Origin: Cordylochernes scorpioides
Lineage: Eukaryota; Arthropoda; Arachnida; Pseudoscorpiones; Chernetidae
Length of the DNA: 64,000 bases
Direction: 5' to 3'
Assembly (NCBI GenBank): GCA_030710605.1
Contig: CP092884.1
Coordinates: forward strand, 16,597,483-16,661,482
Under the pieces are notes generated by a model. The model made no database searches. It saw only the letters and a list, made by a program, of their open reading frames with translations, and had not been told where the DNA came from. The translations under genes were made by a program, and so were the position numbers. Position 1 is the stretch's first letter, and each line of letters begins with the position of its first letter. Of the stretch, positions 1 through 58,232 are shown in pieces.

Positions 1-300
1 CAACAACTACAACAATAAAGGTAAATAATTGTACACTGATATTTCATTATCGTAAACTATGATTGATTGATTAATTGTTAGATTGACACAAAAGTTGAGA
101 AACTGAGTTTATAGGTTATGTCATACTATTGATAAATGTTGATAGTGTTAAGTAAATTATTAGTTTAAAATTAATTAATTAATTAATTATTATTTTACAA
201 ATTTTAAATAGTTTCAAATTTATTTAGCAAAAATTTGAACCTTCGATCTGAATAAATGTTTTGATTTTCGAATTGATTATTTAAATTTGTATTTATTGTA
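1..300. other. AT-rich flank, no gene
   Basis: AT-rich DNA before the helicase frame. The helicase reading frame is closed by a TGA at 274-276, so upstream helicase exons or sequence are missing here. I see no splice acceptor that would clearly join an upstream exon. Confidence 0.6.
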
Positions 301-2259
301 TATATTGTTTTCATTGATGAAATCAGCATGTTGAGTGCAGCTATACTTGGAAAAATCAATTATCAACTACAGCAGATTACCGGTATTTACGATCAACCAT
401 TCGGAGGCATTCACATGATCTTATGCGGCGATTTCAGACAGCTGCCACCTGTGCGCGCTAGACCGTGTTACACAGTACCACACAACCAACTCGGAGGACC
501 TGTACTCTGGCAAAGCATCAACTACTTCCCATTAGTCCATGTTGTCCGACAAACTGACGAGCTGTTTTCGACGATTCTCACCAAAATTGGAGATGGACTC
601 AAACTAAGTGTCAATAATATCGCACTTATTGAGTCCAGGCACAAATCTGAAGTCTGGTGCAAAGAGAACGTACCCAACGCTGTCAGATTGTATTACAGCA
701 ACCATGAAGTAGATTCATACAATCGAAACGCAATTCAAAACGCACACAACTGTATCGCCACTGATATTATGCTTGGGTATTCCAGCAATTCTGAAAAGAG
801 CCGGGAGCAAGGGAAACTTCACAAGATGTCGGTTGCAGAAACCGACGGATTGCCATACATGTTGCCAATAGCAGTAGGATATCCGTACATGATTACATCT
901 AACATAGACGTCGCCGATGGATTGGTAAATGGGGCTATTGGAGTTTTGCTATACATCGAACGTCAGCCAGCCAATGCAGATGACCGTTCTGCTCCAGGAG
1001 GACCATCGACCAGCACAAGTTTGCCGCCAGCTGAAGATGAAATCGCCACTCTATGGTTCCAGTTTGAAGACAAAAATACGGGTACCAAAGTAAAAATCAA
1101 ATGTCGACCACATGTGCACAGCAAACCAAACACCTTATCCGTCGATTGGGTGCCAGTGCACAAGAAAGTGGTAAACATTTCGTTGACAAAAACAGTGAAG
1201 TGTAAGCGAAAACAATTTCCTTGCGTGCCTGCTTGTGCAATTACGATCCACAAGGCCCAGGGTGGGACGTTTACTACAATTGTTTACAAGTACTCCTCAA
1301 ACCAACCACAGCAATTGGTATATGTAGCCATGAGCCGCGTCACAAGTATCGACGGATTGTACATCATAACAGAAAAGGACTCTCCATTGGTTTTCAAACA
1401 TGGCCGAGATGGAAACGACTCACAGACTACTCGAGATATTCGCAATGAATACTTACGACTTCGTGGACACACTCTAGACACAATTACCAAACAAGCCGTA
1501 AAATTCTGTGACGACGCAACCGACGCTGGACAACTTATTGTAACGAACATCAACTGTCAAAGTTTAAGTGCCCATGCCGCGGACATTGAAACAGATACAG
1601 TGATACCACGATCAGACTATTTAGTATTGACTGAAACGTGGATGCGCGACACTTGTGAACCAACTCCAATCAAGGGTTATGAGTGCGTATCCAGGGAAAA
1701 TAATCGACCTAACTCAGATACCAACGCGGCTGGTGGAGTGGCGATCTATCGTAAATTATCATCGACATCTACGGCGGAAGTGTTCCAAGTTGCGATTACA
1801 GACGTAACTCGTGTCATTAAAACCAAGGGTGACATGTGCATGACTGAAGTTACTTGCTTCGCCGCTAATACTAGCTTCAAGTTTATACTCGGTGCTGTAT
1901 ATATTCATCCAGGAGCTAGTATGCAGGATATTGGAATGTTACTATGGCAAGGACTCGGTCCGTACATTCACAACAGCCAGTACGTGCCACCGTTCGTGCA
2001 AATTGATTCTAGTATACCGATTCTTCTGTGTGGTGATTTTAACAAAAACGTAAAGCCTGACAACTCGTTTCTTAATTTCATGAAAAATACGTATAATCTT
2101 GATTGCGTATCAAACGTTTCTAAGTCAACTACGTTAAAAGGAACAACTATCGACTTGACTTTCGCAAGACACATTACAGCAGAAACACTTCCTTTCATTT
2201 CATATTTCTCCTATCATCGTCCTATCCTCAACAAAATCACTCAAATAGGAATTAGTTAA
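301..2259 (+). CDS. Helentron PIF1-like helicase fused to endonuclease, 5'-truncated
   Basis: The frame is open from about 277 and continues 643 codons beyond the ATG at 328. It encodes the C-terminal part of a Helentron (Helitron2-type) protein that moves rolling-circle transposons. A Walker B motif IDEISM sits exactly at the start; then come GDFRQLPPV (residues ~34-42), the late helicase motif AITIHKAQGGT (~303) and YVAMSRV (~331). After residue ~404 an endonuclease/exonuclease/phosphatase domain follows: NINCQS, TETWM, GGVAIYRK, CGDFNKNV (~568) and SYHRP (~628). The order helicase then endonuclease is typical of Helentrons. The Rep nuclease and the Walker A ATP-binding loop are absent, so this copy cannot be autonomous. 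It is otherwise free of stops, which suggests recent insertion. Host PIF1 is unlikely because host PIF1 has no such endonuclease. Confidence 0.88.
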   Translation, partial: YIVFIDEISMLSAAILGKINYQLQQITGIYDQPFGGIHMILCGDFRQLPPVRARPCYTVPHNQLGGPVLWQSINYFPLVHVVRQTDELFSTILTKIGDGLKLSVNNIALIESRHKSEVWCKENVPNAVRLYYSNHEVDSYNRNAIQNAHNCIATDIMLGYSSNSEKSREQGKLHKMSVAETDGLPYMLPIAVGYPYMITSNIDVADGLVNGAIGVLLYIERQPANADDRSAPGGPSTSTSLPPAEDEIATLWFQFEDKNTGTKVKIKCRPHVHSKPNTLSVDWVPVHKKVVNISLTKTVKCKRKQFPCVPACAITIHKAQGGTFTTIVYKYSSNQPQQLVYVAMSRVTSIDGLYIITEKDSPLVFKHGRDGNDSQTTRDIRNEYLRLRGHTLDTITKQAVKFCDDATDAGQLIVTNINCQSLSAHAADIETDTVIPRSDYLVLTETWMRDTCEPTPIKGYECVSRENNRPNSDTNAAGGVAIYRKLSSTSTAEVFQVAITDVTRVIKTKGDMCMTEVTCFAANTSFKFILGAVYIHPGASMQDIGMLLWQGLGPYIHNSQYVPPFVQIDSSIPILLCGDFNKNVKPDNSFLNFMKNTYNLDCVSNVSKSTTLKGTTIDLTFARHITAETLPFISYFSYHRPILNKITQIGIS

Positions 2260-5824: not shown

Positions 5825-5896
5825 TGCATCGGCCGGGAATCGAACCCGGGCCGCCCTCGTGGCAGGCGAGCATTCTCGCCATTGAAATACCGATGC
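5825..5896 (-). tRNA. tRNA-Gly (GCC)
   Basis: On the minus strand the sequence starts GCATCGG and ends CCGATGC plus discriminator A, a perfect 7-bp acceptor stem. The T arm is CCGGG-TTCGATT-CCCGG and the anticodon loop is CTGCCAC with GCC at positions 34-36, which reads GGC/GGU glycine codons. Compared with the usual animal tRNA-Gly(GCC), there is one G-A mismatch in the anticodon stem and a weak D stem (TTTC/GAGA). It may be a working gene or a slightly degraded copy. A poly-T stretch lies just downstream on the minus strand and would serve as Pol III terminator. Confidence 0.88.
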
Positions 5897-10349: not shown

Positions 10350-10560
10350 ATCGATGTTCTTCAAATCGTGCAAAATGGCGACAGAAGTTGACTCAAGAAA
10401 AGCCAACCACGTAGGCGTTTCGGGTTTTTGGCCCTTGTCAGCGACCTTTCTTGATCAATCAAGAAATTGTTTTGGCCAAATATCACGGAACACGTTGAAT
10501 ACACGTTTTGAATATTGTTGTTTCATTAGATGGCGCTTTGCCATCTAAAATGATTATGTG
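10350..10560 (-). mobile_element. Hammerhead-bearing repeat, decayed copy
   Basis: The minus strand at 10446-10407 reads G-CTGACAA-GGGCC..CCC-GAAA-CGCCTA-CGTGG. This is the hammerhead layout of the repeat family seen best at 28220-28261, but the core has G8 changed to A, so catalysis is not expected. The ribozyme block is flanked by the palindrome TTTCTTGAT..ATCAAGAAA, followed by the body with AGATGGCGCTTTGCCATCT. Confidence 0.6.
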
Positions 10561-10659
10561 AGCGATCAGGATATGCTTTTTTTATTTCAATATCAACGAC
10601 TGACCTTTTCTATTTTTTTTTTTATTTGCCGCAAACACACATATATTTAACACAAAGCA

Positions 10660-12236: not shown

Positions 12237-13080
12237 ATATATACCACACAACCTCAATGATCAATAATACAGTCCTCGCATTTTTACATCTTATTTTATA
12301 ATATCTCTGATGATTAAATAAATATAAATTTAAATTATAAAAGGCCTTGAATTATAAGGTTGTCCCAAAAATTCATGTTTTTCTTATTACTTGGCGGAAA
12401 TAATTATTACGGCGAATACATAATAATACATAATACAATTACTTTATACATAATACAAAGACATTATACATAACGCGGCGAATGATATTATGACGAATAA
12501 TATTGGTATTTCAAATTTTTGCAAATGTTTACGAACTTTTGAGATGGCCTTTTATTATAGATTTTCAAATAAAATAGATCAATTATACTCGTACAAATAT
12601 AAAAAAGAGGAAATTAACGTATAATTATGAGGCAAAAGTATAAATCAATATTTGAAAAAAAAATTGTTATTAATCGCGCGTATGATATTTTAAAAAACAA
12701 TTTTATTGGTTTTCATTTAGAAATATAGGAAGAGGTATAAAAAGTTTTTACACCTGGTTTGATTAAAATTAAATACCTATTATAGCGTTTTTTCCCGTCT
12801 CTCATCTCTGAGATTTATTTTTTTCTTCTGATTTATATTAAAATGTATACAGGAAATTAATATTGTGGAGAATTTCCGTAATAAAAAATATTCTAAATTT
12901 AATTTGTTTTTTTTTCCCCAAAAAAAAAAAAAAAGAAAAAAATCTTCTGATTGAATTTTTTTTATTCCCCGGTATATATTAATAATTCTTATATTATTTT
13001 TGAAGATATGTATATATAGATATCTTTGCGAAATTTCGGGTAATGAATAAAATATTAAAAATAATGCAAGACTGGAATTG
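12237..13080. other. No gene recognised
   Basis: AT-rich with long A and T runs (12907-12950). A short near-repeat of 'cataatacaa' units lies at 12415-12470. Confidence 0.5.
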
Positions 13081-13119
13081 TGCTGTAAACAGATGGATAC
13101 ATTCTTAAAAAGTGTTTTC

Positions 13120-13300
13120 CTGATATGGCAACGAAAAGTTGCTGATGGCTTGCGTCATCTGTCGGAATAAATCTCAACTATTCGTTATTTTCCAATTAAT
13201 TCTGATTTGTCCAAATACCCTTTCTTGATTAATCATGCAAAACTAACCAAGTACGCATTTCGGGCTATTGGCTCTCATCAACGTGGTGCAAGTTTACTCC
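13120..13300 (-). mobile_element. Hammerhead-bearing repeat, near-intact copy
   Basis: Minus strand 13286-13247 reads CCACG-TTGATGA, stem II around a CAATA loop, GAAA, TGCGTA, CTTGG. Compared with the hammerhead consensus, C3 is T and stem II has one mismatch; A15.1-U16.1 and three stem I pairs are kept. Upstream in the repeat lies the body with GATGGCTTGCGTCATCT. Confidence 0.6.
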
Positions 13301-13435
13301 AGCATCATAAAAAATCATGAAAACGATATTAAGTGTGAAAGGGTATTTAGCCAATTCTGAAATATGGCTCTGTGGTATATGACTCATCTGTATTGGGCAG
13401 TTTCGCTAGATTAATCTACATACAAAATAAAATGA

Positions 13436-16023: not shown

Positions 16024-16336
16024 AATAAATACAGTATATTCTAATCTATAAAATAAAAGAAGACAAGTTTCTTAAATAATTTTTAAACGCAAGCTTTCGG
16101 GTGGAAACCCTTCGACGGGCAGTATACAATGATCGCGACGATACAAACATGGTACATATGGCAGACAAGAATATATACACCTATGATATTTACATAACTA
16201 TTGCAAATGAGAAATTTACATCATAATGAAACAATATAGAGATTTTAATTTTTACTAAAGATGCTCATTACATAATTGGAAACAAGAATTTCTTTGAAAT
16301 ATGATACTTAACTGATATAGGTAACCATAGGGAGAA

Positions 16337-16795
16337 CTACATGAAGGCCAAGAGAGCGTGATAGGCTTCGGGGAGGTCGATTTTTCTATTGATGCTGCCT
16401 TGCTTATAGGATTCTATGGATTCAAGTATGAGTCTCTGATGTTGGTTACGGATGGATCTGTAATGTATTGTAGGGTGTGTGATGTTGAAAGTATGGCCTG
16501 TGTCCTGTATGTGTTGATATATGAGAGATTTGGAGTCACGGTTAGATATGTTACGAGAGTGCTCAGACATCCTGATGGCAACGGTTCTACCCGTCTCGCC
16601 TACGTAAGTAGCGGAGCATTGCTCACATGAGACGGAATAGACCGCGTCATCAGAACGTAGGGGATCCATGGGGACAAGGGGCTTAGTGTAGGGGTGTCGG
16701 AGGGATGTGAGGAGGTTAGGAGAGTTTTTATAATAGGTACGGATGCCATATGATTTGAGGTGTCTAGCTATATCAACTGCGGGGGGGGGGGGGGG
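16337..16795 (-). pseudogene. Penelope-like GIY-YIG endonuclease, left copy
   Basis: Continues after the C tract with AVDIARHLKSYGIRTYY. The GIY-YIG fold is visible: VYSVSC, then CEQC, TYVGETGRTVAIRMSEH, and LILESIES near the end. The two cysteines between the GIY and YIG halves are typical for Penelope-like elements. The enzyme nicks target DNA to prime reverse transcription. The coding part is intact and ends at 16337, but it is one base out of frame with the reverse transcriptase. The frame upstream of the tract in this register is not the native one. Confidence 0.85.
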
Positions 16796-18266
16796 AATAA
16801 GGAAGGAAACATATAGATCTATAAATTGTGGATGAAACAGGGGCGCCCGGTGTGTATGTGTGTCTATTGATAAAAGCAAGGGGGGAAAAAAGCTTTGGAG
16901 AGGTGAGATATGATATTGTTTTTTCTATAGTTTTAAAAATGTCTAGGGAACAGTGGGTATGGATTCTTTTAGTAAGGGTCTTAATTATGTTAACTTTATG
17001 GGAGGTGGGGCAATGTGAATTAAAGTGTGTGTAACTAGGGGGGCATTGCTTCTTATAGTAAACTGTGGTGTGGTATGATGAAAGGGTACGGATAATGAGG
17101 ATATCTAAGAAAGGAATAACACTATTGGATTCTATTTCTAAAGTAAAGGAAATACTAAGATTGTAGCTATTAAGATATGACAATATGGAGCTCTCCTGGC
17201 CTTTCTTGCAGATGCAAAACACATCATCTATATATCTACGCCACAATTGAATATCAGAAGGGAGAGTGCGGGTGATCCATTGGTCTATTTGTAATAAAAT
17301 AATTTCGGCTACTATGGAGGATAGGGGGCTGCCCGGGGAGCCCTTAATCTGTCTGTAGTGATTCTGTGAGAATGTGAAAGTATTCATGTTTAAACATATA
17401 TCAGTGAGTTGTACTATAGATGAGGAGGTTTGGGAATCAATGTTCTGTGTGTTGAGAAATTGTGATAAACTGCTAGTGATAAGTTCATGTGGCAGGCTAA
17501 GGTAAAGGGAGGTGACATCAAATGAGCACATAATGGTAGAAGGGTCGGGGGTCATAGCGGACATTTCACTGATAAAACGGGGGGTACTATTGATGGAGTA
17601 AGTGTTGTTACAGCTGCTTAATATTGGGGATAGGTGATTGGATAGATACTTGGCTAAAGGAAATGCAGGAGATAAATTATACGCTATGATAGGACTAAGA
17701 GGTATCTCTGGTTTGTGTATCTTAGGGAGGCCGTATATGTAAGCTGAGCTGTGTAGGTTAGAAGTAAAGAGGTTATAATCATCTGGAGTAATGTGTTTGT
17801 TCTTTTTTAAGCGGAGGAGGGAAGTTCTATATGCCTTAGTGATGGAGAGACTGACCTGATTTGATATGAGTGAGAAGGTAGAGCTGTCACTGAGGAGGTC
17901 ATGCATTTTTGAAAGGTAACTATTTTGATTTAAGATGACAGTATTAGATCCCTTATCAGAACGAGTGATTAATATGGATTTGTTGTGTTTTAGTCTCTGG
18001 AGTGTGGTGAGATCTGCACGGTTATTGGGGGGGGGGGGGGGGCAGTAGGGTTTAGATAAAGATTTAGTCACCATATTCCTGATGGAGAATTTATCCTGGA
18101 GGCTGAAAGATTTGACAGATGATTCAATAGCGCTGATGGTTTCTGGGAGGTTGGGCTTTGTAGAGATACGGAACTTAAGGCCCCTCTCCAATAGGGTGAC
18201 TTCCGATGGTGACAGTTTATGGTTCGAAAGGTTGACGACGGTTGAAGACCTTTGTTCAAGGTCCTG
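16773..18266 (-). pseudogene. Penelope-like reverse transcriptase, left copy
   Basis: Open frame from the internal junction (18266) to the poly-C tract; 472 codons follow the first ATG at 18191. Motif A is CSFDVTSLYLSLP, motif B is QIKGSPGSPLSS, motif C is RRYIDDVFC, and FLDILIIR follows. These are the marks of Penelope reverse transcriptases. The N-terminus is cut off at the head-to-head junction. Two C tracts lie in the frame: 16 C (18042-18027, in frame) and 15 C (16795-16781). With 14 or 17 C the second tract would join the frame to the endonuclease; with 15 it ends in PPPPRS-stop. So the protein is split in this copy. Confidence 0.85.
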
Positions 18267-19069
18267 GGTTCCTTTACTTTAGAAATAGAATCCAATAGTG
18301 TTATTCCTTTCTTAGATATCCTCATTATCCGTACCCCTTCTTCATACCACACCACAGTTTACTATAAGAAGCAATGCCCCCCTAGTTACACACACTTTAA
18401 TTCACATTGCCCCACCTCCCATAAAGTTAACATAGTTAAGACCCTTACTAAAAGAATCCATACCCACTGTTCCCTAGATATTTTTAAAACTATAGAAAAA
18501 ACAATATCATATCTCACCTCTCCAAAGCTTTTTTCCCCCTTGCTTTTATCAATGTTTCATCCACAATTTATAGATCTATATGTTTCCTTCCTTATTCCCC
18601 CCCCCCCCCCCCCCCCCCCCCCCCCGCAGTTGATATAGCTAGACACCTCAAATCATATGGCATCCGTACCTATTATAAAAACTCTCCTAACCTCCTCACA
18701 TCCCTCCGACACCCCTACACTAAGCCCCTTGTCCCCATGGATCCCCTACGTTCTGATGGCGCGGTCTATTCCGTCTCATGTGAGCAATGCTCCGCTACTT
18801 ACGTGGGTGAGACGGGTAGAACCGTTGCCATCAGGATGTCTGAGCACTCCCGTAACATATATAACCGTGACTCCAAATCTCTCATATATCAACACATACA
18901 GGACACAGGCCATACTTTCAACATCACACACCCTACAATACATTACAGATCCATCCGTAACCAACATCAGAGACTCATACTTGAATCCATAGAATCCTAT
19001 AAGCAAGGCAGCATCAATAGAAAAATCGACCTCCCCGAAGCCTATCACGCTCTCTTGGCCTTCATGTAG
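18267..19069 (+). pseudogene. Penelope-like RT C-terminus and endonuclease, right copy
   Basis: Begins mid-reverse-transcriptase (FTLEIESNSVIPFLDILIIR), directly at the junction with the left copy. It lacks 27 bp (nine codons) present in the left copy after FIN, an in-frame loss. One C is missing from a C6 run near 18535, which shifts the frame before the long tract. The tract itself is 29 C (18597-18625), a length that would keep the native frame. The endonuclease (VYSVSCEQC..YVGETGR) is intact from about 18627 to 19069. Confidence 0.85.
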
Positions 19070-19419
19070 TTCTCCCTATGGTTACCTATATCAGTTAAGT
19101 ATCATATTTCAAAGAAATTCTTGTTTCCAATTATGTAATCAGCATCTTTAGTAAAAATTAGAATCTCTATATTGTTTCATTATGATGTAAATTTCTCATT
19201 TGCAATAGTTATGTAAATATCATAGGTGTATATATTCTTGTCTGCCATATGTACCATGTTTGTATCGTCGCGATCATTGTATACTGCCCGTCGAAGGGTT
19301 TTCACCCGAAAGCTTGCGTTTAAAAATTATTTAAGAAACTTGTCTTCTTTTATTTTATAGATTAGAATATACCGTTCTAAGAAGAGAGTCTCTTATTTCT
19401 TATTAATAAATACAGTACA

Positions 19420-23440: not shown

Positions 23441-24990
23441 ATATGGAATTTTTATATATGGGAAAAGGAAATATATTTTGATAAATGGTGCTAAAAGGTA
23501 GGAATATAACAAGTAGATTCATTTGTAATTAATTCATGCTACATATGAAGAAATTAAACATAGCTATATTAAAAATTAAACTGGAGAATCTTCCAATAAG
23601 ACATCAGAGATAAGACATCCAATCACAGAGAACACCACTATATCAGAACCCGCCTCTCCATAAGCCACGCCGATCGACTAAACCTAAAGAGTAGAAGAAG
23701 CAGCCATTAAGGACCATTTAAGAATATAATTCGAAATTGTTAAATGGTTTCAACCCGATATCAATAAGGGAGTTGGTAATGAAGGCCTTGAGCACTTTGT
23801 GGGATCAAAAACTAATAATCTTTCAAAGTTGTTATCGGGGCGGAGGCAATAAAAGCGGCCCCCTCCACTATAAAACAAGCAGATAAAGGCCCATGACGAA
23901 CAACCCGAGGCCACGGGGAGATAAGACCGCCCGAGCCTGCTAATCCACCAGGCCCTATCAGTCATAACCCCAACAACAAAGCTGATTGCTTCATTTGGCC
24001 TCTCAAGGATTCATCTGGACGAGGATCTTTGCATGGCTTGAAACAATTTGGTTGCCTTTCTTCCAGGTTGGAATATATTCCACATAACCTTCCAGGAAGT
24101 TTACAAAATGCCGATATAATCAGTTTCTTATGGAGGTGGTTTCTCACTGGAGGTTGGGTTATACCAGGGTAAGTCAATTTCGTTTGTATAAATGTGTTCG
24201 TTTCGGATGCTGTTCATCAGATAGGATGTGGGGATAATTGATATATAGAGAGACTGATAATTTTTATCAAATCATAATTGCTGATTGGGACTACTATCCC
24301 ACTTTCTTTTAATTATTTTTTCTATTTAACTGATTTAACCGATTTTTAAGGATTTTATTTAAATTATAGGCTGTTCATCTTTTACTTAACTGAATTTATA
24401 AAAGGTTCACAGGTACGTATAAAACATGTATCTGAATGAAAAATCACTTTCAATCGATCTTCTCACGAAAGACGACCAAATAATGGATACTCTAGGATTC
24501 ACATGGAGATGGTCTTTCATTAAAGATTGGGTTAGCTCAGTAGTCATATTTGATTTCATAAAGATAGTCTTACAGAATGTAAGATGGGATTTTCGATGCA
24601 ACAAAGGATGATCAACCGTTTTACTTGTTTCATGGCAATTTACTTCTTTTCTAACAAAGCTAAAATATTAAGAATATTCAATTTTTCAGCAAACTTCTAC
24701 TAAAATAATAGGGTTTGGATATTACTGAAACGTTTATCTCCGAAAGTTTATTTATTTATTATCAATATTGTATTTCTTTAGATGACCCGCCCGTGATCGT
24801 TATTTGACGTGTTAGTAACAATTGTCGCATTATGGTAATATGATGATAGTTAGTGATAACAAGAATAATGGTCCTTCTATCAGGATTACTCTAAGTGTTA
24901 ATGATGAAATTATACCTCAGTTTATCGATGAGTGTGATTGTTCTATAATATACTATCTGTTACCATTTATGTAAGTAATTATTTATATAT
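23441..24990. other. GC-richer patch without an assigned gene
   Basis: The part from 23620 to 24180 is clearly GC-richer than its flanks and has open frames on the minus strand (23750-23965 and 23962-24177). Neither shows a domain that I recognise, and frames shift between them. It may be an old coding or transposon fragment. The rest to 24990 is AT-rich and empty. Confidence 0.35.
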
Positions 24991-25072
24991 TCAACGCGTA
25001 GACAGAGAAGATTAGCATGGCCTCTGCGTAAGGATGACACGCAAAATCGTGAAGCGTTCCATATTTTTTTTT
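24991..25072 (+). pseudogene. U6 snRNA copy, 5' part degraded
   Basis: ACAGAGAAGATTAGCATGG is the conserved U6 ACAGAGA box and catalytic AGC region. It is followed by AGGATGACACGCAAAATCGTG and GCGTTCCATATTTTTTTT, the 3' stem-loop and the Pol III stop. The first ~40 bases of U6 are not recognisable. It is likely a retropseudogene or a degraded gene. Confidence 0.85.
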
Positions 25073-25191
25073 TATAGAGACAAAGTTAGGATTTAAATAA
25101 TGTGAATGGTATAAATAAATCAAAAATTGAAAATAAAAACTGAATAATTCTATAATCAACGCGCGGCGCACGCGTAAAGAGATAGAGAGAG

Positions 25192-25292
25192 AAAAAGCGC
25201 TTAACGATTTTTCGTGTCATCCTTGCACAGGGGCCATGCTAATCTTCTATGTATGGTTCCAATCTTAGTATATGTACCGCAGAACAAGCGTG
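25192..25292 (-). pseudogene. U6 snRNA copy, full length but mutated
   Basis: The minus strand has the 5' part GCTTGTTCTGCGG, ACATATACTAAGATTGGAAC, then AGAAGATTAGCATGG and AGGATGACACG, ending in a T5 stop. The ACAGAGA box reads ACATAGA and the 3' end is altered (CGTTAAGCGC), so I judge it nonfunctional. It faces the other U6 copy across about 120 bp. Confidence 0.85.
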
Positions 25293-26805: not shown

Positions 26806-27802
26806 ACTAGACGAATGGCCCGGGCAACGCCCGGGTTTTACCCGAGTGCGTGTATATTTTAAAAACGTTTTAATTCAAATACTATTCGTTACAATTATAA
26901 ATTGGCGCCATGGATGTCACTCTTGTGAAACGTCCCGTTCCAAACTGTGTGTTTTTAAAATGTTTTAATTATATATAATATAACGGTATAATAACGGTAT
27001 AAAGAAATAGTGAGCCTATAGCCTAGTGGTCATGGCATCTGCCCGGTAAGCGGAAGGTCGTGGGTTCGATTCCCATCCCTTGACACTTTTTTTTTATTTT
27101 ATCCATTCTGACCAAAATCTATCCGTGAAATTCACACAGTGGACTTCACACAGACAGAATAAGACAATTATATAAGTAGATATCATAAAATACAACAATA
27201 TCACAAACATACTGATGTATCCTTAAAACACCTAAGCAATTTCTATACAAAACAAATTTATCTTTATAATCTATATATAGATGAATATTTTGCCGGGAGG
27301 ATATTGATCTACAAAGACAAAGGTTGCCTCTCCTGTCTAGATGGCAACGAGTTTTGACGCTTATTTTGACGGGAGTGAGGACCCCCACTTATTCTATATA
27401 CAGTTACGAGCGTCTTTCCTCATCTCCTAATCAGTCATCTCTCTCTGTCAGCGTTTGCTTTTTTTTTTTTTTGGAATTGCGCCCTCCTATTGGTTGGCTA
27501 CGGTCACGCCACCTTTGCCCCCCCCACTCGCTATTTATGTAACTATTGTGTTGGAGCGGGTCGCTCCCTAAATAAATGCATATATTAGATAATAACCAAA
27601 TGGAATCCTCTCTTTCTTTTTCCCAGTAAGAGACGCCTACGGAAGCCAACAGTACATAGACAGATAAAGCACATAGGCTATAGTTATTAACTAACATATG
27701 CAATTAATTAAGGCGCCAATTTATAATTGTAACAAATAGTATTTGAATCAAAACATTCAATCGGGTAAAACACGGGCGTTGCCCGGGTCATTCGGCTAGT
27801 TT
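26806..27802. mobile_element. ~1-kb TIR element carrying a tRNA-like gene
   Basis: Inverted ends of about 125 bp: the left begins CTAGACGAATGGCCCGGGCA and the right, read on the minus strand, begins CTAGCCGAATGACCCGGGCA; both run on through TTTTACCCGA and AAATTGGCGCC. Between them lie a tRNA-like sequence (27010-27085), a patch shared with 60437-60490, and a CT/T-rich region. No transposase. It behaves like a non-autonomous element; the family is unknown to me. Confidence 0.7.
27010..27085 (+). tRNA. tRNA-like sequence 1 (degraded acceptor)
   Basis: Box A is TAGCCTAGTGG and box B is GGTTCGATTCC. The anticodon arm TCTGC-CCGGTAA-GCGGA would give anticodon GGT with C instead of the universal U33. 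The 5' acceptor strand no longer pairs with CCTTGAC at the 3' side. TTTTTTTT follows at once. It is almost the same as 57818-57892, so it is a degraded member of a small tRNA-like family, not a normal tRNA gene. Confidence 0.55.
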
Positions 27803-28045
27803 TAATATATATATGAATACAATATATTCAAATTGGTCATTTTTCAAATTCGTGTCACGTTGTGAAAAATTATTTCTTAAATTTAAATATAAACATATGT
27901 GAAAAAAAAATTTGTCAGTTGTTGATATTAAAAACAAGATAATCCTTTCCCGACTTCTCAAATGAGCATTTTTAGATGGAAGAGCGCCATCTAGTGGAAC
28001 AGAATTCAACTAAACGTTGATTTAGCTTGTTCAAAAGATATCTGG
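27803..28045 (-). repeat. Body of the hammerhead-bearing repeat, second unit
   Basis: On the minus strand: GGGTTGGCCAGATATC, TTCCACTAGATGGCGCTC and CCATCTAAAAATG. It is a second, ribozyme-less copy of the body directly next to the unit at 28046-28200, giving a partial tandem dimer. Confidence 0.55.
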
Positions 28046-28262
28046 CCAACCCATATATATATAAATATTAAAAATAAATAAGGCATCTCCTGACCACGAG
28101 CACATGTGCTTTTTAGATGGCAGAGCGCCATCTAGTGGAGCAAGAATAAACTAAACGTTTATTTAGCTTGCTCCGTGATATTTGGCCAACCCAATTTCTT
28201 GACAAATCAAGAAAAGTCATCCACGAACGCGTTTCGCGCTGTTAGCGCTCGTCAGTGTGGAG
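28046..28262 (-). mobile_element. Hammerhead-bearing repeat, best-preserved copy
   Basis: The ribozyme (28261-28220) is followed on the minus strand by the palindromic TTTCTTGATTTGTCAAGAAA and then the body with GGGTTGGCCAAATATCACGG and CTAGATGGCGCTCTGCCATC. There is no protein. The size, the self-cleaving RNA and the dimer-like body resemble retrozymes, the small non-autonomous retroelements that spread through ribozyme-made circular RNAs. That identification is inference. Confidence 0.6.
28220..28261 (-). ncRNA. Minimal type I hammerhead ribozyme
   Basis: 5' to 3' on the minus strand: TCCACA (stem I), CTGACGA (core, matches CUGANGA), GCGC-TAACA-GCGC (perfect 4-bp stem II), GAAA, CGCGTT, CGTGGA (stem I). 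Stem I pairs TCCAC with GTGGA, with one C-A mismatch next to the core. Stem III is tiny: A15.1-U16.1 and C15.2-G16.2. The cleavage position 17 would be U, which is allowed. Such a short stem III usually needs a dimer to cleave well. Confidence 0.65.
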
Positions 28263-28617
28263 TAGACTGTAACCACTGCGACTGTTTTTTCATATATAAA
28301 TATATATATATCGTTTCGAAAATGTCCAGACAGCAACAAGGCTATTTTATTAAATTGCTACGCCTAAACAGTAAGTTTTTTAGAACCGAGCTCTTAATCG
28401 GAAAAATATGCCACAAAGTGTCATATCAATTGATTGTGTCATATCAATTTGAAGTGTCATGGGCATTTGCTGTAAGATCGTCTGCTACCTGGTGTTCAAC
28501 AGTTTAAGCTTCATGTGAAGCGATGTGAAATACAACCTTTTTTCTGTGCTTGTATTCAGGTGGTATTTTTACATCAACGAATATATCCCATTGATTGTAT
28601 AACAATGCGTTTTCCTA

Positions 28618-35815: not shown

Positions 35816-36090
35816 AATATAATAGGGGGAAACCACAGTTCATAAATACTGGACATTCTTGGCCATTTTCTGGTGGGCCTTCTTACGGCGAGGTCTCTGT
35901 TTAAATATAATATTTTTAAATTAAAAAAATAAAATTTGAATTTGAATAAGAATAAAAATTGAGAAAACAGATTTATGCATCAATCTGTGATGAAGATTTC
36001 CTTATTAAATATTCATTATTAATTTTTACACGCGCTGTGTTTACTCTATACATTTTGAAATATAGTTTTAAAAATATATATTGAAGGAAA

Positions 36091-37092
36091 ATGTCATTCA
36101 ATATAGCGAGATGGTTGTTTCAAACCAGTTCACGAAGAACATTCAGCAGAATTGCTTCAAAAGTTAATAAAAGTGATGAATTCGAAAAACTACAAACACG
36201 TGTTAATTGTCGCTACAGGGATACTTTCAACAGAATCCTCGACCAATGTGGTCAACGCTACCATTCTGAGTTTGATGAGATTTTTATTAATACAGATCCC
36301 ACGAGACTAAAATATAGAGGAAAAGGAATACAAGGCCGTTGCTTTAGTTATAATAACAATAGCTTCAAAGTTTCACAACTCCGTTCAAATAGCCAATCGG
36401 AATATTCATTCACTTTAGTAAAGGCTCTCAATGAGGTGAATGTTTCTAAGAAGTTGAATTATCTGTATGGTGCAAATAATAATCAATCTCAAGGGTTCTC
36501 TAGGCTATGGAATTCCTGGCTGGTATGGGATTATCCTCAGAATTTTCCCGAACCCTTGAGCTTTTATCCAAAGAAAAAATACATTTACATGGTATTGGAG
36601 ATGGAAGACTGTGGATTACCCTTAAATAAAGTAGTAAAAGCTAAAGGACTAACTTCAGAGCAAGTATTGAGTATTGCGGCACAGGTTGGTCTTGCGCTAT
36701 CCGCAGCTGAGGGGTCATGCAAATTTGAACATCGGGATCTTCATCCAGGCAATATCCTGCTGTCCTCAACCGATAAGAACTTTGTAGAAACTGTAATCAA
36801 TGGTCAGATGTACAGAACAAAGTTACATGGCTACAAGGCCTCCATCATTGACTTTGGAAAGTCTCGTGTTGCGGATAACTTTTCTGACTTGTCAATTAGA
36901 AGCTCCTTATTATCTACTTCGAAATCTATCCAGAAAGGAAATCTGAAATATCTTTGTGAAATATTCAGGGAAATTAACTGGTATAATACAGTTTTCATGG
37001 AAGACTGGCAGAAAAAGTTGGATAATGCGCATACTACCCATAGTAACTGCTTAGATTTCGTAACAGACTTCCTCGAAGAATGGACCCTGTGA
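36091..37092 (+). CDS. Haspin-like serine/threonine kinase
   Basis: A single exon of 333 codons. Kinase motifs are complete: glycine loop GKGIQG (77-82), lysine in SFKVSQL (K93), helix C glutamate in NEVNVSKKL (E115), hinge YMVLEMEDCG, catalytic FEHRDLHPGN (HRD 214-216, N221) and IIDFGKSR (DFG 254-256). FEHRDLH-GN is close to haspin, the kinase that phosphorylates histone H3 Thr3 in mitosis. Classical haspins have a DYT-type motif where this has DFG, and most carry a long N-terminal region that is absent here. The start is chosen at an ATG in an AAAATGT context. No introns, so it could be a retrogene; the nearby fragment (35178) and UTR copy (40837) show local duplication. It is the best candidate for an expressed gene here. 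Confidence 0.85.
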   Translation: MSFNIARWLFQTSSRRTFSRIASKVNKSDEFEKLQTRVNCRYRDTFNRILDQCGQRYHSEFDEIFINTDPTRLKYRGKGIQGRCFSYNNNSFKVSQLRSNSQSEYSFTLVKALNEVNVSKKLNYLYGANNNQSQGFSRLWNSWLVWDYPQNFPEPLSFYPKKKYIYMVLEMEDCGLPLNKVVKAKGLTSEQVLSIAAQVGLALSAAEGSCKFEHRDLHPGNILLSSTDKNFVETVINGQMYRTKLHGYKASIIDFGKSRVADNFSDLSIRSSLLSTSKSIQKGNLKYLCEIFREINWYNTVFMEDWQKKLDNAHTTHSNCLDFVTDFLEEWTL

Positions 37093-37327: not shown

Positions 37328-38239
37328 CCAGTTGTTAAATATTTTCTCACTTACATTGTATCTTCTGAGATTTATTGGAAGTGTTGTGTGGAATAAAAGC
37401 AGAGCGACCATTCCCTGACCTTAAAGCTGAATGTTAATAACTCACTGCTATCTTCCATCAAAAATAAAAATATACAAACTGAAGGCTGATTTTATTTTTC
37501 ATTTATAGAAGTTGACTAACAGCTATTTAAAATTTTCAAGAAAAGTCAAACACGTACGCATTTCTCTCCCTCATCATTGTGGTTCAAGCTGTACTTTAAC
37601 GTTTAAGTTCAAAATAACTTTATTAGATATCTCTCAAAAGTGCCACCATGATCATCCTTTATAATCTAAGGATTAGTCGAATTTTTAATTTGATTATTGG
37701 AGCAATTTTCCTCTTTTAATGTAAAGTCTTGAATTCTAGAATGTCCTTTTATTTATTTTGGAAAGGGTTTCTGGATGTGTAATATCAATAGTTATTTTTA
37801 TTCTGTTACCTTCTTCTAATTGAGAGAAAATAAGTTTTGGCTCTTTAAGTTCCCTTTATTGCAATTGTCCTGGCAGGTTCTTTTCATATTAGAATTTTCA
37901 GAGTATTAATAGATATTTTTATTATATACAGTGGTCACACAGCAAATATTTTGTTAATTGGGATATTAGATCTGTGTCTTTTTTTGTTTTTAAAATATTT
38001 TATTTAACTTGCTTTCATGTCTGTCCTCAAATATTGTAATCAATTTTTAGTATACTTATAGTATTAGTATATTAGTATATTTTGTACACTTGTTCGAACC
38101 TGATGACAATATAAGTTTACAAATTTTCAAACTTCTGGGTTGTGAGAATGGCCAGGAACGGACAAATTACCAAATTGTCTTTAACAATTTTATATTTAAT
38201 TTCAATATGCTTCCAGATGACATAAAAGTATGAAGCTTT
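37328..38239 (-). other. Mostly empty; decayed hammerhead motif at 37551-37582
   Basis: On the minus strand 37582-37551: CCACA-ATGATGA-GGGAGA-GAAA-TGCGTA-CGTG. C3 is A and stem II has collapsed, so it is inactive. The neighbouring CAAGAAAAGTC matches the flank of the other copies. The rest is AT-rich. Confidence 0.45.
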
Positions 38240-38575: not shown

Positions 38576-39873
38576 CAGAGGGTGTTTCCTTTCAAATGAA
38601 ACGATTTCAAACGTCCGTTAGAACTTTATTTTTCGAACGTGAATTTTTTTCATGTGTTCTATGTGCTTCCCCTTCTTCTTGGCTATCTCCCTGCATCGGA
38701 CTTTCCAAGCTGCGAACACTTCCTTGACTTTGGAGAGCGAAACATTCGACCACTCCTCTTGTGCGGCTTTCCAAAGTCCGGCCTCAGTTTTGGGACGTCG
38801 GTTGAAGAGCCGTTGTTTCAACATACCGAACCCGTAAAAATCCAGTGGGCTGGCGTCGGGAGACTTCACTGGAATGTCCGAGTTCCTGATAAAATTTAGG
38901 CCTAGGGTGTCCTTCATTTCTTGTAGGAACTGTTGGGTTTTGTTGGAGGTATGGGAAGAGGCTTTGTCGTGATGAAGGAACACTTTGTCCATTTCCCCTG
39001 GGTAAAGGTCCTTCAGTTGTTCGATGACAGGTTTCAGAACGCATTCTATATAGAATTCTGAGTTCACCTTCACCTTCGATGGAACCTTTATGAGCGGAAG
39101 GACTCCACGGCCAGTCATTACCCCGACAACCATGAAACCTTTAAGGAAAGTTTCGGAGCATTGGTGAACCCAATTATCCGGGACCTGATTGCCTCTTTTG
39201 ATGTAACAGATCTTCCGGATTCCATTGCAATACGTCACATACATCCATGCTTCGTCCAATGTTGCAGTATATTCCGATCTGGAACCGGCCAGGTGTTCCT
39301 CGTAGAGCTTCCGGGCATTCGTTGCACGGTTTTTCATGTGGAAAGGGGTGAGCTTGTGAACCTTGCCTTTTCGTCGGGTATCCAGTTCCAAATCTTTGTG
39401 AATGATGTTATTTATCGTTTTTAGCGATGTTCCACACATTCTGGAAAGTTGGCGCTGAGATGGTGGATTTTCAGTAGTTGCTAGCCGCTTTACATTGGAA
39501 ACCGTGGCGGGGGTCCGCACCGGACGTGGTCGATCGACTTGAAATTTTTGCCCATTGGATTCAGCTTCCCTTTTCTTTCCGATGCCATTTACTACCCTAC
39601 ATATTGTAGCTTTGCCAACATCTAGTCCTTCTGCTTTTAGCTTTTTCACTATGACGCTATAACTGTTTCCTTCTTTGGAAAGCCGCACAAGAGGAGTGGT
39701 CGAATGTTTCGCTCTCCAAAGTCAAGGAAGTGTTCGCAGCTTGGAAAGTCCGATGCAGGGAGATAGCCAAGAAGAAGGGGAAGCACATAGAACACATGAA
39801 AAAAATTCACGTTCGAAAAATAAAGTTCTAACGGACGTTTGAAATCGTTTCATTTGAAAGGAAACACCCTCCG
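38576..39873 (-). mobile_element. Mariner-type transposon with duplicated inverted end
   Basis: Flanked by TA on both sides. The two ends, 38576-38772 and 39679-39873, are inverted copies of about 195 bp, beginning CAGAGGGTGTTTCCTTT at the left (one base differs on the right). Both copies correspond to the 3' end of the transposase gene. The normal 5' terminal repeat and promoter are thus missing, replaced by an inverted 3' end. Confidence 0.85.
38618..39688 (-). CDS. Mariner-family transposase
   Basis: 356 codons without a stop; the catalogued start is GTG, so the true N-terminus is uncertain and is probably lost at the inverted duplication. There are an N-terminal helix-turn-helix (RLSKEGNSYSVIVKKLKAEG, SQRQLSRMCGTSLKTI) and a DDE/D domain with LDEAWMYV, HHDKASSH and KSPDASPLDF. 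By my count 36 residues separate the second and third aspartates. KGFMVVGVMTGRG and the KSPDASP.DF ending fit a mariner/Tc1 branch common in arthropods. The catalytic residues are intact. A small amount of the start is shared with the duplicated end (GTGCGGCTTTCCAAA). Confidence 0.85.
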   Translation of the reverse strand: MRLSKEGNSYSVIVKKLKAEGLDVGKATICRVVNGIGKKREAESNGQKFQVDRPRPVRTPATVSNVKRLATTENPPSQRQLSRMCGTSLKTINNIIHKDLELDTRRKGKVHKLTPFHMKNRATNARKLYEEHLAGSRSEYTATLDEAWMYVTYCNGIRKICYIKRGNQVPDNWVHQCSETFLKGFMVVGVMTGRGVLPLIKVPSKVKVNSEFYIECVLKPVIEQLKDLYPGEMDKVFLHHDKASSHTSNKTQQFLQEMKDTLGLNFIRNSDIPVKSPDASPLDFYGFGMLKQRLFNRRPKTEAGLWKAAQEEWSNVSLSKVKEVFAAWKVRCREIAKKKGKHIEHMKKIHVRKIKF

Positions 39874-42010: not shown

Positions 42011-42650
42011 AAAAAAAGGTCAAAATTATTAATTGTGTAATTAATAATTAAGTCAGTTTCTGCGTGTTTAGTCATACATTAACATGTTTATTCATGTTAA
42101 TAAAATTTCATAATATAATTGGCTATTATTTTCTCATATACAATAGAGACTCCCATGAAAGACGGCCTCAAAAATTACGGCAAACATGGTCTCTCATCAA
42201 AGACTCTGTCATGATCAGTCAGGGATGATAGGTTATGGTAGATTCTTACAAGGCAAAAATAGGTGTTCACATTAATAATTATGTAACCTACATAGGTTTA
42301 TTAAGTAAACTTTGTGTGGAAAACGTCAATTTGCAGGTTGGCCTTTAGCCTGTACCCAGATATTTTTCCATTTTCTTGATATATCAAGAATAGCCATCCA
42401 CTTGATTTATCAAGAAATTGGGTCAAGATTTGGAATCAGGGAACAGTCTAAATCAATGTTTGATTGATTTCTGTTCCACTAGATGGCGCTCTACCATCTA
42501 AAAAGCATATGTTCTCCTCTCCTGGTATGGATATGCCTTCTTTATTTTTAATATTAACACCTGACCTTTTTATTTTTTCTATTATTTTATACATTAATCG
42601 TTATATATATATATTTTTTATGAAACAAAGTATATATATATATATATATA
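42011..42650 (+). repeat. Hammerhead-family repeat body without ribozyme
   Basis: 42370-42570 has two TTGATnTATCAAGAA palindromes, the body GTTCCACTAGATGGCGCTCT and TTTAATATTAACACCTGACC. Between the palindromes only CCATCCAC of the ribozyme flank remains, so the hammerhead was deleted. A long TA microsatellite follows at 42603-42652. Confidence 0.5.
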
Positions 42651-43996: not shown

Positions 43997-44584
43997 TCTA
44001 GGTTATTATATTATCGAATTACTTAGAAATATTTGAATGTTTTCTTTTCTATAAATAACATCTATTTGATTTTTAAGGTTTTCGAGTTTTAACCTTCATA
44101 GAAATACATCCTATACCACGATAACAAATATAAGATAGTCTGAAACACGTATGAGGTTGGTTTTCTTGGCATAATTCGTTAAAAAAATTAACGTTTCGTT
44201 GATGTACATTAAGATAGGTAGAGTTATAACTATTAATGTTTGGTTATATGGTATTTGTATGTAATTTTGTATAAATTTTGAACACATATGTAGCGCTGAT
44301 ACAATTATTACTAAGTGTCCATATATGCGAAACATATAATTGGTATATGTTATCCCAACATAGACTGATTAACAAGTGCTTTGATATTAAGTTTAACTCC
44401 TTCTTTGAGTATATTCTAAATTTATCTTGAAAGTAAAATGTGAGAATAAAACCATATAAAACATATATATATAATAAATATCAGAACGATGCATAATGTG
44501 TATTATTCCAGTAGAAACTTTAATAATAGCAGTGAGGAAGAATGAGCAACAAAACCAGTATTTGCAAACTCAAACAAGAGCCAA
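43997..44584. other. No gene recognised
   Basis: AT-rich; no repeats shared with the window. Confidence 0.5.
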
Positions 44585-44637
44585 CCTTTGTCCAATGGTT
44601 TCGGGTATGGCCCTCATCAGTAAAAGGGTTTAAAGTT
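44585..44637 (-). ncRNA. Hammerhead-like motif with intact core
   Basis: Minus strand: CCTTTTA, CTGATGA (perfect core), GGG-CCATA-CCC (stem II, 3 bp), GAAA, CCATTGGAC, AAAGG. Stem I can pair CCTTT with AAAGG. The linker between GAAA and stem I is about three bases longer than in the 28.2-kb copy, and no clear NUH cleavage triplet with an A15.1 partner is formed. It is probably a diverged copy. Confidence 0.45.
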
Positions 44638-47479: not shown

Positions 47480-48010
47480 TAGTTGTTATGTCGGGGAGAC
47501 GGGTAGATCCGTCGCCATCAGAATGGTTGAGCATTCCAGAAACATCTCTAATAAAAACCTAAATTCCCCTATTTACAGTCATTCTATGCAAACCGGTCAT
47601 ACATTCAATCTAACAAATCCATCCATTCTATACAACAATATCAATAATAAGTACCAAAGACTTTTACTAGAGGCATTTGTGTCAATAAAAACAAACAGCA
47701 TCAACAGGCATATAGATATACCAGAACAATACCATATGTTATGTGAATAGCCATAGGTTGCATTTACCTGCCCTTGATTAACACCATTCATAGTGCATAT
47801 GTACTTAGTCCAGATTTATTAGCATTTAATCCCTATAATCTTTTTAGCATATTTGGTTCTTATTTTTATCTTTAAATACTTTTATCTTTTGCAGTTATGT
47901 AAATTTTCTTTTCAGCTTTGTGTATATATGGATCCTCAGCGCGTTTATTACTCTTACCTGATGAAGGACGATATGTCCGAAAGCTTGTATGCATGCTAAT
48001 AAAAAGAAGC
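47480..48010 (+). mobile_element. Penelope-like element 3' part, second family
   Basis: The frame ending at 47750 encodes YVGETGRSVAIRMVEHSRNI and RLLLEAFVSIKTNSINRHID, the second half of a GIY-YIG endonuclease. It is related to the element at 16 kb but clearly diverged. A ~200-bp tail follows and ends in the hammerhead-like block at 47950-48000. The reverse transcriptase and the GIY half are absent (5'-truncated). Confidence 0.8.
47952..48000 (+). ncRNA. Hammerhead-like motif at a Penelope end
   Basis: CTGATGA (47958-47964) is followed by A, GGAC-GATAT-GTCC (stem II) and GAAA. GC..GC with U97 and A98 can make a 3-bp stem III and a UA cleavage site (after A98). Stem I is weak: only about three A-U pairs next to a C-A mismatch. 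The core is the best among the Penelope-type ends in the window. Confidence 0.45.
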
Positions 48011-57765: not shown

Positions 57766-57817
57766 CTCCTGATAAAATTGTGCTAATAATATATTATATT
57801 GAAAAATAAATTAATAC

Positions 57818-57892
57818 GTCCAGGGTAGCCTAGTGGATATGGCATCTGCCCGGTAAGCGGAACATTGTGGGTTCGATTCCCATCCCTGGACA
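57818..57892 (+). tRNA. tRNA-like gene 2, anticodon GGT, atypical
   Basis: GTCCAGGG pairs with CCCTGGAC as an 8-bp acceptor stem. The D arm is GCC/GGC, box A TAGCCTAGTGG, anticodon arm TCTGC-CCGGTAA-GCGGA, T arm GTGGG-TTCGATT-CCCAT, box B GGTTCGATTCC, and a T-rich terminator follows. The simplest fold gives GGT (threonine), but position 33 is C where nearly all tRNAs have U, and the acceptor has one base pair too many. Parts resemble arginine tRNAs. It may be a variant tRNA, or a SINE founder. Confidence 0.65.
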
Positions 57893-58232
57893 CTTTTATT
57901 TTTCCGTTCGTCATTACTCTTCATAATTCACCCTTTCATACCTCATCCAAAAAGGTTAGAAATAATCGATATTTTACTTTGAAATAAAAAATTTTGATAT
58001 TTCGTTGAAAAGAAACTCATGCGGTTTAAACTTCAAGTGTCGTTTTACAATCACAGGCCGCAGTGTATTATAAAAATAAATTAGTTCTTCAAACGATAAC
58101 ATATTGACAATTGACAATTAAAAAACAGTTTATTGATATCTAGTCAACGGTCAAAAGAGAGTTTACAAAGTTTAAAACAGTGTAGGAAATATGTACACCA
58201 GACGAGGCCTTCACTGAAGGGACGTCCGGATC
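57893..58232. other. No gene recognised
   Basis: AT-rich; a 43-codon minus-strand frame (58115-57985 area) has no motif. Confidence 0.45.

What the first reader, a model, noticed from the sequence alone, without database searches (positions are those of the whole stretch)
28220..28261. A complete minimal hammerhead ribozyme inside a dispersed repeat
The minus strand shows CTGACGA, a perfect 4-bp stem II (GCGC/GCGC), GAAA, and a stem I (TCCAC/GTGGA) in the right order for a type I hammerhead with a tiny stem III. Position 17 is U and A15.1-U16.1 can form. The repeat is short, non-coding and has a dimer-like body next to the ribozyme, which fits animal retrozymes (circular-RNA retroelements of Penelope type). 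One C-A mismatch next to the core and the 2-bp stem III are the weak points.
Basis: partly seen in the sequence, partly recalled or inferred. Interest (0 to 1): 0.82.

Follow-up and report, generated by a model that had tools for sequence, protein, structure and literature searches.

The report
Hammerhead retrozyme inserted by Penelope-type machinery
The ribozyme is real and belongs to an abundant, recently active family of tiny non-coding jumping elements, and the scars these elements leave in the genome look like those of Penelope retrotransposons, which points to the kind of enzyme that moves them.

Summary
Minus strand 28204-28277 carries a type I hammerhead. The C-A mismatch is a minority variant (53 of 58 distinct copies pair G-C there). 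It is not minimal: stem I has a 6-bp inner helix, a 3/1-nt internal loop and a 4-bp outer helix, all supported by copies.

In the window's own 2.6-Gb genome the repeat is a 350-nt, 40% GC, non-coding unit, 97-99% identical among scored copies on 10 of 24 contigs, including a tandem array of about 29 units. A related 338-nt family also exists. The stems covary. This is a non-LTR animal retrozyme.

New is how it inserts. Of 125 mapped 3' ends, 111 fall at two sites about 47 nt apart. In head-to-head pairs, 31 of 33 classifiable ones use one site on each side; 17 of 33 have end duplications of 8 bp or more (10% when shuffled). A Penelope-like element in the window and its genomic copies show the same anatomy (10 of 12 pairs mixed; 12 of 12 with duplications). 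Reviews call such elements the likely but unproven helper. 75 of 110 cDNA arms cross the cleavage site, as a circular or multimeric template predicts. Cleavage, circles and helper were not tested experimentally.

The parts
28204..28277 (-). Type I hammerhead ribozyme of the window copy: outer stem I 28268-28265/28218-28215, inner stem I 28261-28256/28225-28220 (28256-28225 is A-C), core 28255-28249, stem II 28248-28245/28239-28236, GAAA 28235-28232, palindromic loop III ACGCGU 28232-28227, predicted cut 28226/28225
   Evidence: Sequence, family covariance model 89 bits (this copy is in the model), pair counts
28065..28282 (-). S1 arm of the retrozyme copy: unit positions 294 to 350 and 1 to 161, 3' end at site S1 (..TTTTTAATAT)
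   Evidence: 98.2% identical to the 350-nt unit
28283..28293 (+). Probable S2 arm, only 11 nt (TGTTTTTTCAT = unit 198-208), head to head with the S1 arm
   Evidence: Sequence against the unit; short, so an inference
28057..28068 (+). Left copy of the probable target duplication ATATATAAATAT (overlaps the S1 end)
   Evidence: the same 12-mer also occurs at two other places in the window (4497, 26638)
28292..28303 (+). Right copy of the probable target duplication ATATATAAATAT
27914..28053 (-). Older retrozyme copy without hammerhead (unit 33-172), beside whose AT-rich 5' edge the newer copy landed
   Evidence: 78% identical to the unit
10390..10626 (.). Old head-to-head copy: hammerhead arm on minus, body arm on plus
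   Evidence: 32.9 bits; similar junction at C15 (L122)
13050..13303 (-). Copy of the second retrozyme family (338-nt unit) with hammerhead at 13230-13303
   Evidence: 75.3 bits; in the model
37533..37599 (-). Decayed hammerhead copy with shortened stem II
   Evidence: 41.5 bits, E=1.4e-9
44099..44173 (+). Decayed hammerhead copy
   Evidence: 29.5 bits, E=6e-6
42368..42590 (.). Old head-to-head copy without complete hammerhead
16037..19404 (.). Penelope-like element, two head-to-head arms; left end at S1, right end 33-37 nt longer (tail)
   Evidence: Inverted arms 95% identical over 1135 bp; frames; ends. RT/GIY-YIG assignment is recalled; no Pfam hit
16024..16036 (+). Target duplication AATAAATACAGTA, left
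19405..19417 (+). Target duplication AATAAATACAGTA, right

Best explanation
The window holds a slightly mutated, 5'-truncated copy of a young non-LTR retrozyme. Working model: multimeric transcripts of genomic copies are cut by the hammerhead into 350-nt units, probably by hammerheads paired through the palindromic loop III ACGCGU, and the units are closed into circles by a host ligase. A Penelope-type reverse transcriptase/endonuclease cuts both strands of AT-rich DNA and starts cDNA at two internal RNA sites about 47 nt apart (S1, in the loop of a conserved hairpin, and S2 downstream), as a rule one site per target strand. The cDNAs run 5'-ward, sometimes many times round the circle, and are joined 5' to 5'. 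This leaves a head-to-head twin with one S1 end, one S2 end and a short target duplication. Shown here: hammerhead fold by covariation, unit size and arrays, two end sites, mixed pairs, duplications, arms that cross the cleavage site, and the same anatomy in a Penelope-like element of the same genome. Inferred: self-cleavage, dimer action, circularisation, the identity of the helper.
For: Hammerhead. Unit and array. Ends: 111 of 125 at S1 or S2. Pairs: 31 of 33 classifiable mixed, p 6.5e-8 against one half. Duplications of 8 bp or more in 17 of 33 against 10% shuffled. Penelope-like element: 36 of 38 ends at S1 or S2, 12 of 12 pairs with 8-15 bp duplications, 9 of 11 binned pairs mixed, 10 of 12 with one pair a base outside its bin. 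S1 hairpin covariation: 38 both-side cells against 3-7 slid. Arms: 75 of 110 cross the cleavage site, 1 of 110 starts within 4 nt of it. Published in vitro PLE work shows both-strand cutting and extension and two adjacent internal start sites (PMC11167929).
Against: No RNA or biochemical data. Rfam is not significant for the window copy. 16 of 33 retrozyme pairs lack an overlap of 8 bp and 9 show none. Seven of 40 pairs have an end outside the bins; two retrozyme pairs and two PLE pairs use the same site twice. The published PLE assay saw no start-site difference between strands and no need for hammerhead cleavage. The S1 sites of retrozyme and PLE have no clear sequence match and the PLE hairpin is not supported. 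One template per insertion is not shown: own arm is the closest in 8 of 34, and arms of L009 and L010 differ by 6.0 and 4.9%. No shuffle control was run for the PLE duplications.
Confidence: 0.8

Rival explanations
1. A retrozyme moved by a LINE: the head-to-head form is ordinary LINE twin priming, and S1 and S2 are two T-rich priming sites.
For: Both sites follow T-rich stretches; twin priming of LINEs is established (recalled); no LINE of this genome was examined as a control.
Against: Twin priming does not predict two fixed sites used one on each side (31 of 33); the Penelope-like element of the same genome shows just this form; a tRNA-like SINE shows an adjoining inverted match in 1 of 40 scored copies (a coarse control).
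Confidence: 0.12
2. A satellite DNA with a fossil hammerhead, spread by unequal crossing-over and segmental duplication without an RNA stage.
For: Long array of near-identical units on C1.
Against: Scattered copies with variable 5' ends, fixed 3' ends, AT-rich targets and duplications are signs of target-primed reverse transcription.
Confidence: 0.04
3. The template is a linear multimeric transcript, not a circle; the hammerhead is incidental to insertion.
For: Arms longer than one unit and arms crossing the cleavage site need only an uncleaved multimer; the published PLE inserts RNA with an inactive hammerhead equally well in vitro.
Against: Stems are kept by compensatory change, so the ribozyme has mattered; units of the C1 array are nearly all identical in both arms (156 of 161 redundant readings), as one circle predicts, though homogenisation or a uniform source array would do the same.
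Confidence: 0.25
4. A chance hammerhead-like fold in a repeat.
For: Rfam E=0.45 for this copy; loose core patterns occur by chance (7 found, 2.6 expected).
Against: Covariation across two families and three independent model hits in the window.
Confidence: 0.01

Closest known systems
Metazoan non-LTR retrozymes (PMC7229834, parts 1-4 of 6 read)
   Same: Type I hammerhead, 170-400 nt non-coding low-GC unit, tandem copies from dimers to large arrays, strongly self-paired RNA; weak helix III with a palindromic tetraloop as in the axolotl HHR_Amex1
   Different: Sequence is species-specific; here the insertions show two fixed 3' ends and mixed head-to-head twins, which the parts read do not describe; circles and cleavage not tested here
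Penelope-like elements with pLTR, tail and minimal hammerhead (PMC3846280 passages; PMC11167929 main text)
   Same: Head-to-head arms, a 30-40 nt tail on one side, 8-15 bp duplications, AT-rich targets, tandem units
   Different: The retrozyme has no ORF, a canonical rather than minimal hammerhead, and a 47-nt rather than 31-37-nt spacing of the two ends
Plant LTR retrozymes (described in PMC7229834; PMC4918200 seen in listing only)
   Same: Non-coding retroelement with a hammerhead and a proposed circular RNA stage
   Different: Type III hammerhead, LTRs and 4-bp duplications there; type I and none of these here
Rfam Hammerhead_HH9 (RF02275)
   Same: Best Rfam match; same order of stems and core
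   Different: Below gathering score (25.5-26.5 against 52 bits); shorter stem III

Membership tests
Metazoan non-LTR retrozyme | Type I hammerhead with intact core and stems | tested here: met
   58 rows, 94.3% of cells paired, both-side changes in stems I and II; core CTGAYGA in 45 of 58, TTGAYGA in 11, G8A in 2
Metazoan non-LTR retrozyme | Short (about 170-400 bp) tandem units, dimer to multimer | tested here: met
   350-bp period on C1, about 29 units; 338-bp pair in L061
Metazoan non-LTR retrozyme | Low GC, no protein-coding frame, no LTR | tested here: met
   40.3 and 40.2% GC, longest ATG frame 48 and 44 aa; no LTR seen at scattered copies
Metazoan non-LTR retrozyme | Highly self-paired unit RNA | tested here: met
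   -123.5 kcal/mol, z -9.5 against 100 shuffles
Metazoan non-LTR retrozyme | Target duplications longer than 4 bp when present | tested here: met
   8 bp or more in 17 of 33 classifiable pairs, 10% when shuffled
Metazoan non-LTR retrozyme | Self-cleavage and circular RNA in tissue | not testable with these tools
   No RNA data; arms crossing the cleavage site (75 of 110) fit a circle or a multimer
Penelope-type insertion anatomy | Head-to-head arms with a tail on one side and a target duplication | tested here: met
   31 of 33 classifiable pairs mixed; the PLE of this genome 9 of 11 binned, 10 of 12 by eye
Penelope-like element | Encodes RT and GIY-YIG endonuclease | tested here: not met
   The retrozyme unit has no frame above 48 aa
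Minimal PLE hammerhead | Lacks the stem I internal loop and outer helix | tested here: not met
   Outer stem I pairs 92.1% of cells with both-side changes
Plant LTR retrozyme | Type III hammerhead within LTRs | tested here: not met
   Type I order of stems, no LTR

The most novel reading that the evidence does not exclude
Retrozyme insertion obeys a two-site rule: one Penelope-type RT dimer holds one circular RNA, nicks both strands, and must start one cDNA at S1 and the other at S2, so each new copy is a mixed head-to-head twin, often with one arm too short to notice. Running many times round the circle makes satellite-like arrays in a single event. If so, hammerhead satellites arise directly by rolling-circle reverse transcription, and the Penelope 'tail' is the mark of the second start site rather than an optional extension.
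Probability: 0.4. Interest if true: 0.8.

Novelty: new member of a known kind. Interest (0 to 1): 0.64.

Why it matters
Animal retrozymes make abundant circular RNAs, but which enzyme copies them back into DNA is open; a 2020 review says the repeats show no conserved motif from which to deduce the helper (PMC7761336, passages). Here the insertions carry a two-site, mixed-twin scar that a Penelope-like element of the same genome also leaves. That turns a guess into a test that can be run on any genome with both elements, and suggests how ribozyme satellites could form in one step.

Tried and rejected
Rfam alone: window copy not significant. Viral-contig scans for the hairpin and hammerhead patterns: 0 matches each. 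Loose core pattern: 7 window matches, 2.6 expected; apart from 28232 none is at a place the family model finds. A script for perfect hammerheads reported one weak place, at 44620 minus, and missed the window copy because of its mismatch. PLE S1 hairpin: no better than shuffles. One template per insertion: inconclusive. Pfam gave no family for the PLE frames; that assignment rests on recalled motifs, the tail anatomy and the literature. Organism not identified; an octopus/SINE paper search led nowhere. Papers PMC8557442 and PMC5785218 are not held. An earlier count said 58 loci; the script used 56 of the 80 loci held then (left out: duplicates L007 and L072, and 22 loci of the C1 array: L011-L030, L062, L063).

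The two-site rule for retrozymes was not seen in the papers listed (listings; a few of these read in part). Most subscription papers are not held, so this is not proof of absence.

Full report
Observation. The motif is present as described. Rfam does not certify the window copy: no hammerhead at gathering thresholds, Hammerhead_HH9 at E=0.45 locally. Two less mutated relatives from the same genome reach HH9 at E=1.5e-4 and 7.5e-5, below gathering too. The case had to be made from copies.

Copies in the window. BLAST of the region against the window found relatives. A covariance model from 58 genomic hammerheads gives five window hits at E below 1e-5: 28204-28277, 13230-13303, 37533-37599 and 10390-10460 on minus, 44099-44173 on plus. 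The first two are in the model; the other three are independent. Three weaker hits (E 0.008 to 0.8) were not used.

Copies in the genome. The window lies in a 2.62-Gb assembly of 24 contigs. Query 28100-28290 had 3755 first-look candidates, of which 40 were scored; those listed besides the window itself are 97-99% identical over nearly the whole query, on 10 contigs, apart from one short extra match; a run on C1 has an exact 350-bp period. A related family (query 13050-13310) had 4726 candidates, 40 scored, 78-86% identical to the old window copy. Candidates are not confirmed copies, and the two sets may overlap. The units are 350 nt (GC 40.3%, longest ATG frame 48 aa) and 338 nt (40.2%, 44 aa), about 69% identical to each other.

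The ribozyme. In the array unit stem I is TCCACG/CGTGGA. The window's A at the last pair is a G-to-A change at a CpG, seen also in L002 and L006; 53 of 58 distinct rows have G-C. The 58 rows are the 60 distinct regex hits less a chance match (L057:3070) and the copy at 10390; the window copies at 28204 and 13233 stand in for L001 and L031. 94.3% of 924 cells pair. Both-side changes occur in outer stem I (17 and 9 rows, plus a single one), at the outermost inner pair (16) and in stem II (15): 58 cells against 1-4 in six slid controls. The shuffle control was beaten for cells paired, both-side cells and the covariation score (0 of 500 each), not for the number of pairs (360 of 500) or types (458 of 500). 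Related rows count repeatedly, so the number of independent events is smaller. Loop III is the palindrome ACGCGU in 41 of 58; position 17 is A 23, C 19, U 16. By analogy with amphibian hammerheads (PMC7229834: one pair capped by a palindromic tetraloop, active as dimers) I infer dimer action. The unit RNA folds at -123.5 kcal/mol, z -9.5.

How it inserts. Copies were mapped on the unit, position 1 being the base after the cut. In family 1 most 3' ends are at 161 (..TTTTTAATAT) or 208 (..TTTTTTCAT), most followed by AT-rich sequence; 5' ends are scattered. Within 20 nt beyond the end ATATAT or TATATA occurs in 31 of 43 family-1 ends and 17 of 67 family-2 ends, against 5.2% of random window positions. 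Over 56 of 80 fetched loci, 125 ends were mapped: family 1 S1 25, S2 18, other 5; family 2 S1 35, S2 33, other 9. There were 40 head-to-head pairs: 31 S1+S2, one S1+S1 (L044, whose flanks are inverted copies of each other), one S2+S2 (L034), seven with an end outside the bins. 31 of 33 against one half gives p 6.5e-8. The C1 array, left out of this count, is mixed too: by its end coordinates about 24 units ending at S1 and 4.85 units ending at S2. Some copies are single (L002, L004, L005, L066, L070, L071). The bins were set after seeing the ends.

Duplications. The best end overlap is 8 bp or more in 17 of 33 classifiable pairs, 10% in shuffled pairings; 9 of 33 show none. In 19 pairs with less repetitive flanks it is 6 of 19 against 1.5%. 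Clear cases are ATATTTAAACCTCTG (L067) and TTGTATTATTTTATTA (L075). The window copy is best read as such a twin: S1 arm 28065-28282, an 11-nt S2 arm 28283-28293, and ATATATAAATAT on both sides; the 12-mer also occurs twice elsewhere in the window, so this reading is an inference. The old copies at 10390-10626 and 42368-42590, where hammerhead strand and body strand oppose each other, are head-to-head forms; L122 shows a similar junction elsewhere.

Penelope-like element. Window 16037-19404 holds frames that I recognise from memory as PLE reverse transcriptase and GIY-YIG endonuclease (no Pfam hit) in two inverted arms (95% identical over 1135 bp), with AATAAATACAGTA on both sides and one end 33-37 nt longer. 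A genome search with its 3' end scored 40 of 723 candidates. I fetched 39 end stretches. Adding the two window ends and dropping one duplicate (L104) and two internal read-throughs (L090, L112), 38 ends gave 23 S1, 13 S2 and 2 just beyond the S2 bin. Of 12 head-to-head pairs, 12 have overlaps of 8-15 bp at their ends; no shuffle control was run for these. 9 of 11 binned pairs are mixed, 10 of 12 counting L101/L102, one base outside its bin. Two are S1+S1.

Literature. PMC11167929 (abstract and main text): a purified PLE protein cuts and extends both strands of AT-rich DNA and starts at two adjacent internal sites, matching the genomic tail; no start-site difference between strands was seen, and hammerhead mutants inserted equally well. 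PMC3846280 (passages): tail at one of the inverted pLTRs, head-to-head arrangement, 8-10 bp duplications. PMC7229834 (parts 1-4 of 6): animal retrozymes, helper unknown, PLEs a strong candidate. PMC7761336 (passages): no motif to deduce the helper. PMC8969392 and PMC8490949 (passages) add nothing on the rule. So the twin-with-tail form is known for PLEs; in retrozymes, and as a near-strict mixed rule, I did not find it in the searches listed in Tried and rejected.

Template. Of 110 arms with an S1 or S2 end, 75 cross the cleavage site and 1 starts within 4 nt of it (2.9 expected if uniform). These arms were therefore not copied from the cleaved linear unit; circle or linear multimer remain. 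Identical units in the C1 array (156 of 161 readings; overlapping loci, so redundant; 3 distinct units) favour a circle but homogenisation would do the same. Arms of one pair are closer to each other than to the mean of other pairs' arms in 30 of 34, but closest in only 8 of 34, so a single template per insertion is not shown.

S1 hairpin. S1 lies in the loop of GGTCAGG/CCTGACC (family 1) or GATMAGG/CCTKATC (family 2). On 60 of 63 extracted sequences (left out: L057:2020, L063:2438, L077:1903), 89.6% of cells pair and 38 cells change on both sides against 3-7 in slid controls; the number of changed pairs (3) does not beat shuffles. The PLE counterpart did not fold better than shuffles.

Control. 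A tRNA-like SINE of the window (57800-57960) had 40 of 496 candidates scored, with an adjoining inverted match at one. This is coarse, since only best candidates are scored. No LINE control was run.

Verdict. A real hammerhead in a slightly mutated copy of a young retrozyme family: a new member of a known kind. The two-site twin scar shared with the Penelope-like element is the part of wider interest.

Noticed in passing
L010:1256 (+), L049:2085 (+), L071:697 (+), L039:284 (-): A third hammerhead-like repeat: CTGAYRAGGGYCATTAGCCCGAAACCATGGTCTC (L039 differs by a few bases) with an 8-nt palindrome ACCATGGT in place of ACGCGU; in L010 and L071 the flanks CCTAGA/TCTAGG can form stem I.
   Followed up: partly
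window 47481-47741 (+) and 47958-47982 (+): Fragment 62% identical to the PLE endonuclease frame, followed about 220 bp on by CTGATGAAGGACGATATGTCCGAAA, possibly the minimal hammerhead of a PLE pLTR.
   Followed up: partly
window 44599-44620 (-): CTGATGAGGGCCATACCCGAAA, a hammerhead core pattern that the family model does not report; it resembles the third repeat.
   Followed up: partly
L087 and L088 (C21:32556656 and C21:32558635): A PLE twin whose flanks are a family-2 retrozyme, so it seems to have inserted into one.
   Followed up: no
L044:867-1694: The one S1+S1 retrozyme pair: its two outer flanks are inverted copies of each other, so a larger palindrome.
   Followed up: no
window 24961-25068 (+) and 25186-25285 (-): Two U6-like sequences in opposite orientation within about 330 bp, both poor in the 5' stem.
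   Followed up: no
window 57819-57891 (+), 27019-27076 (+), 5825-5896 (-): tRNA-like matches; the first belongs to a repeat with 496 first-look candidates, 95-100% identical among those scored.
   Followed up: partly
window 277-2259 (+): 660-aa frame with a PIF1-like helicase match, perhaps part of a Helitron (recalled).
   Followed up: no
window 36085-37092 (+): 335-aa frame with a haspin-like kinase match, E=1.9e-14.
   Followed up: no
window 38618-39721 (-): 367-aa frame that looks like a Tc1/mariner-type transposase (recalled; no Pfam hit at 0.001).
   Followed up: no
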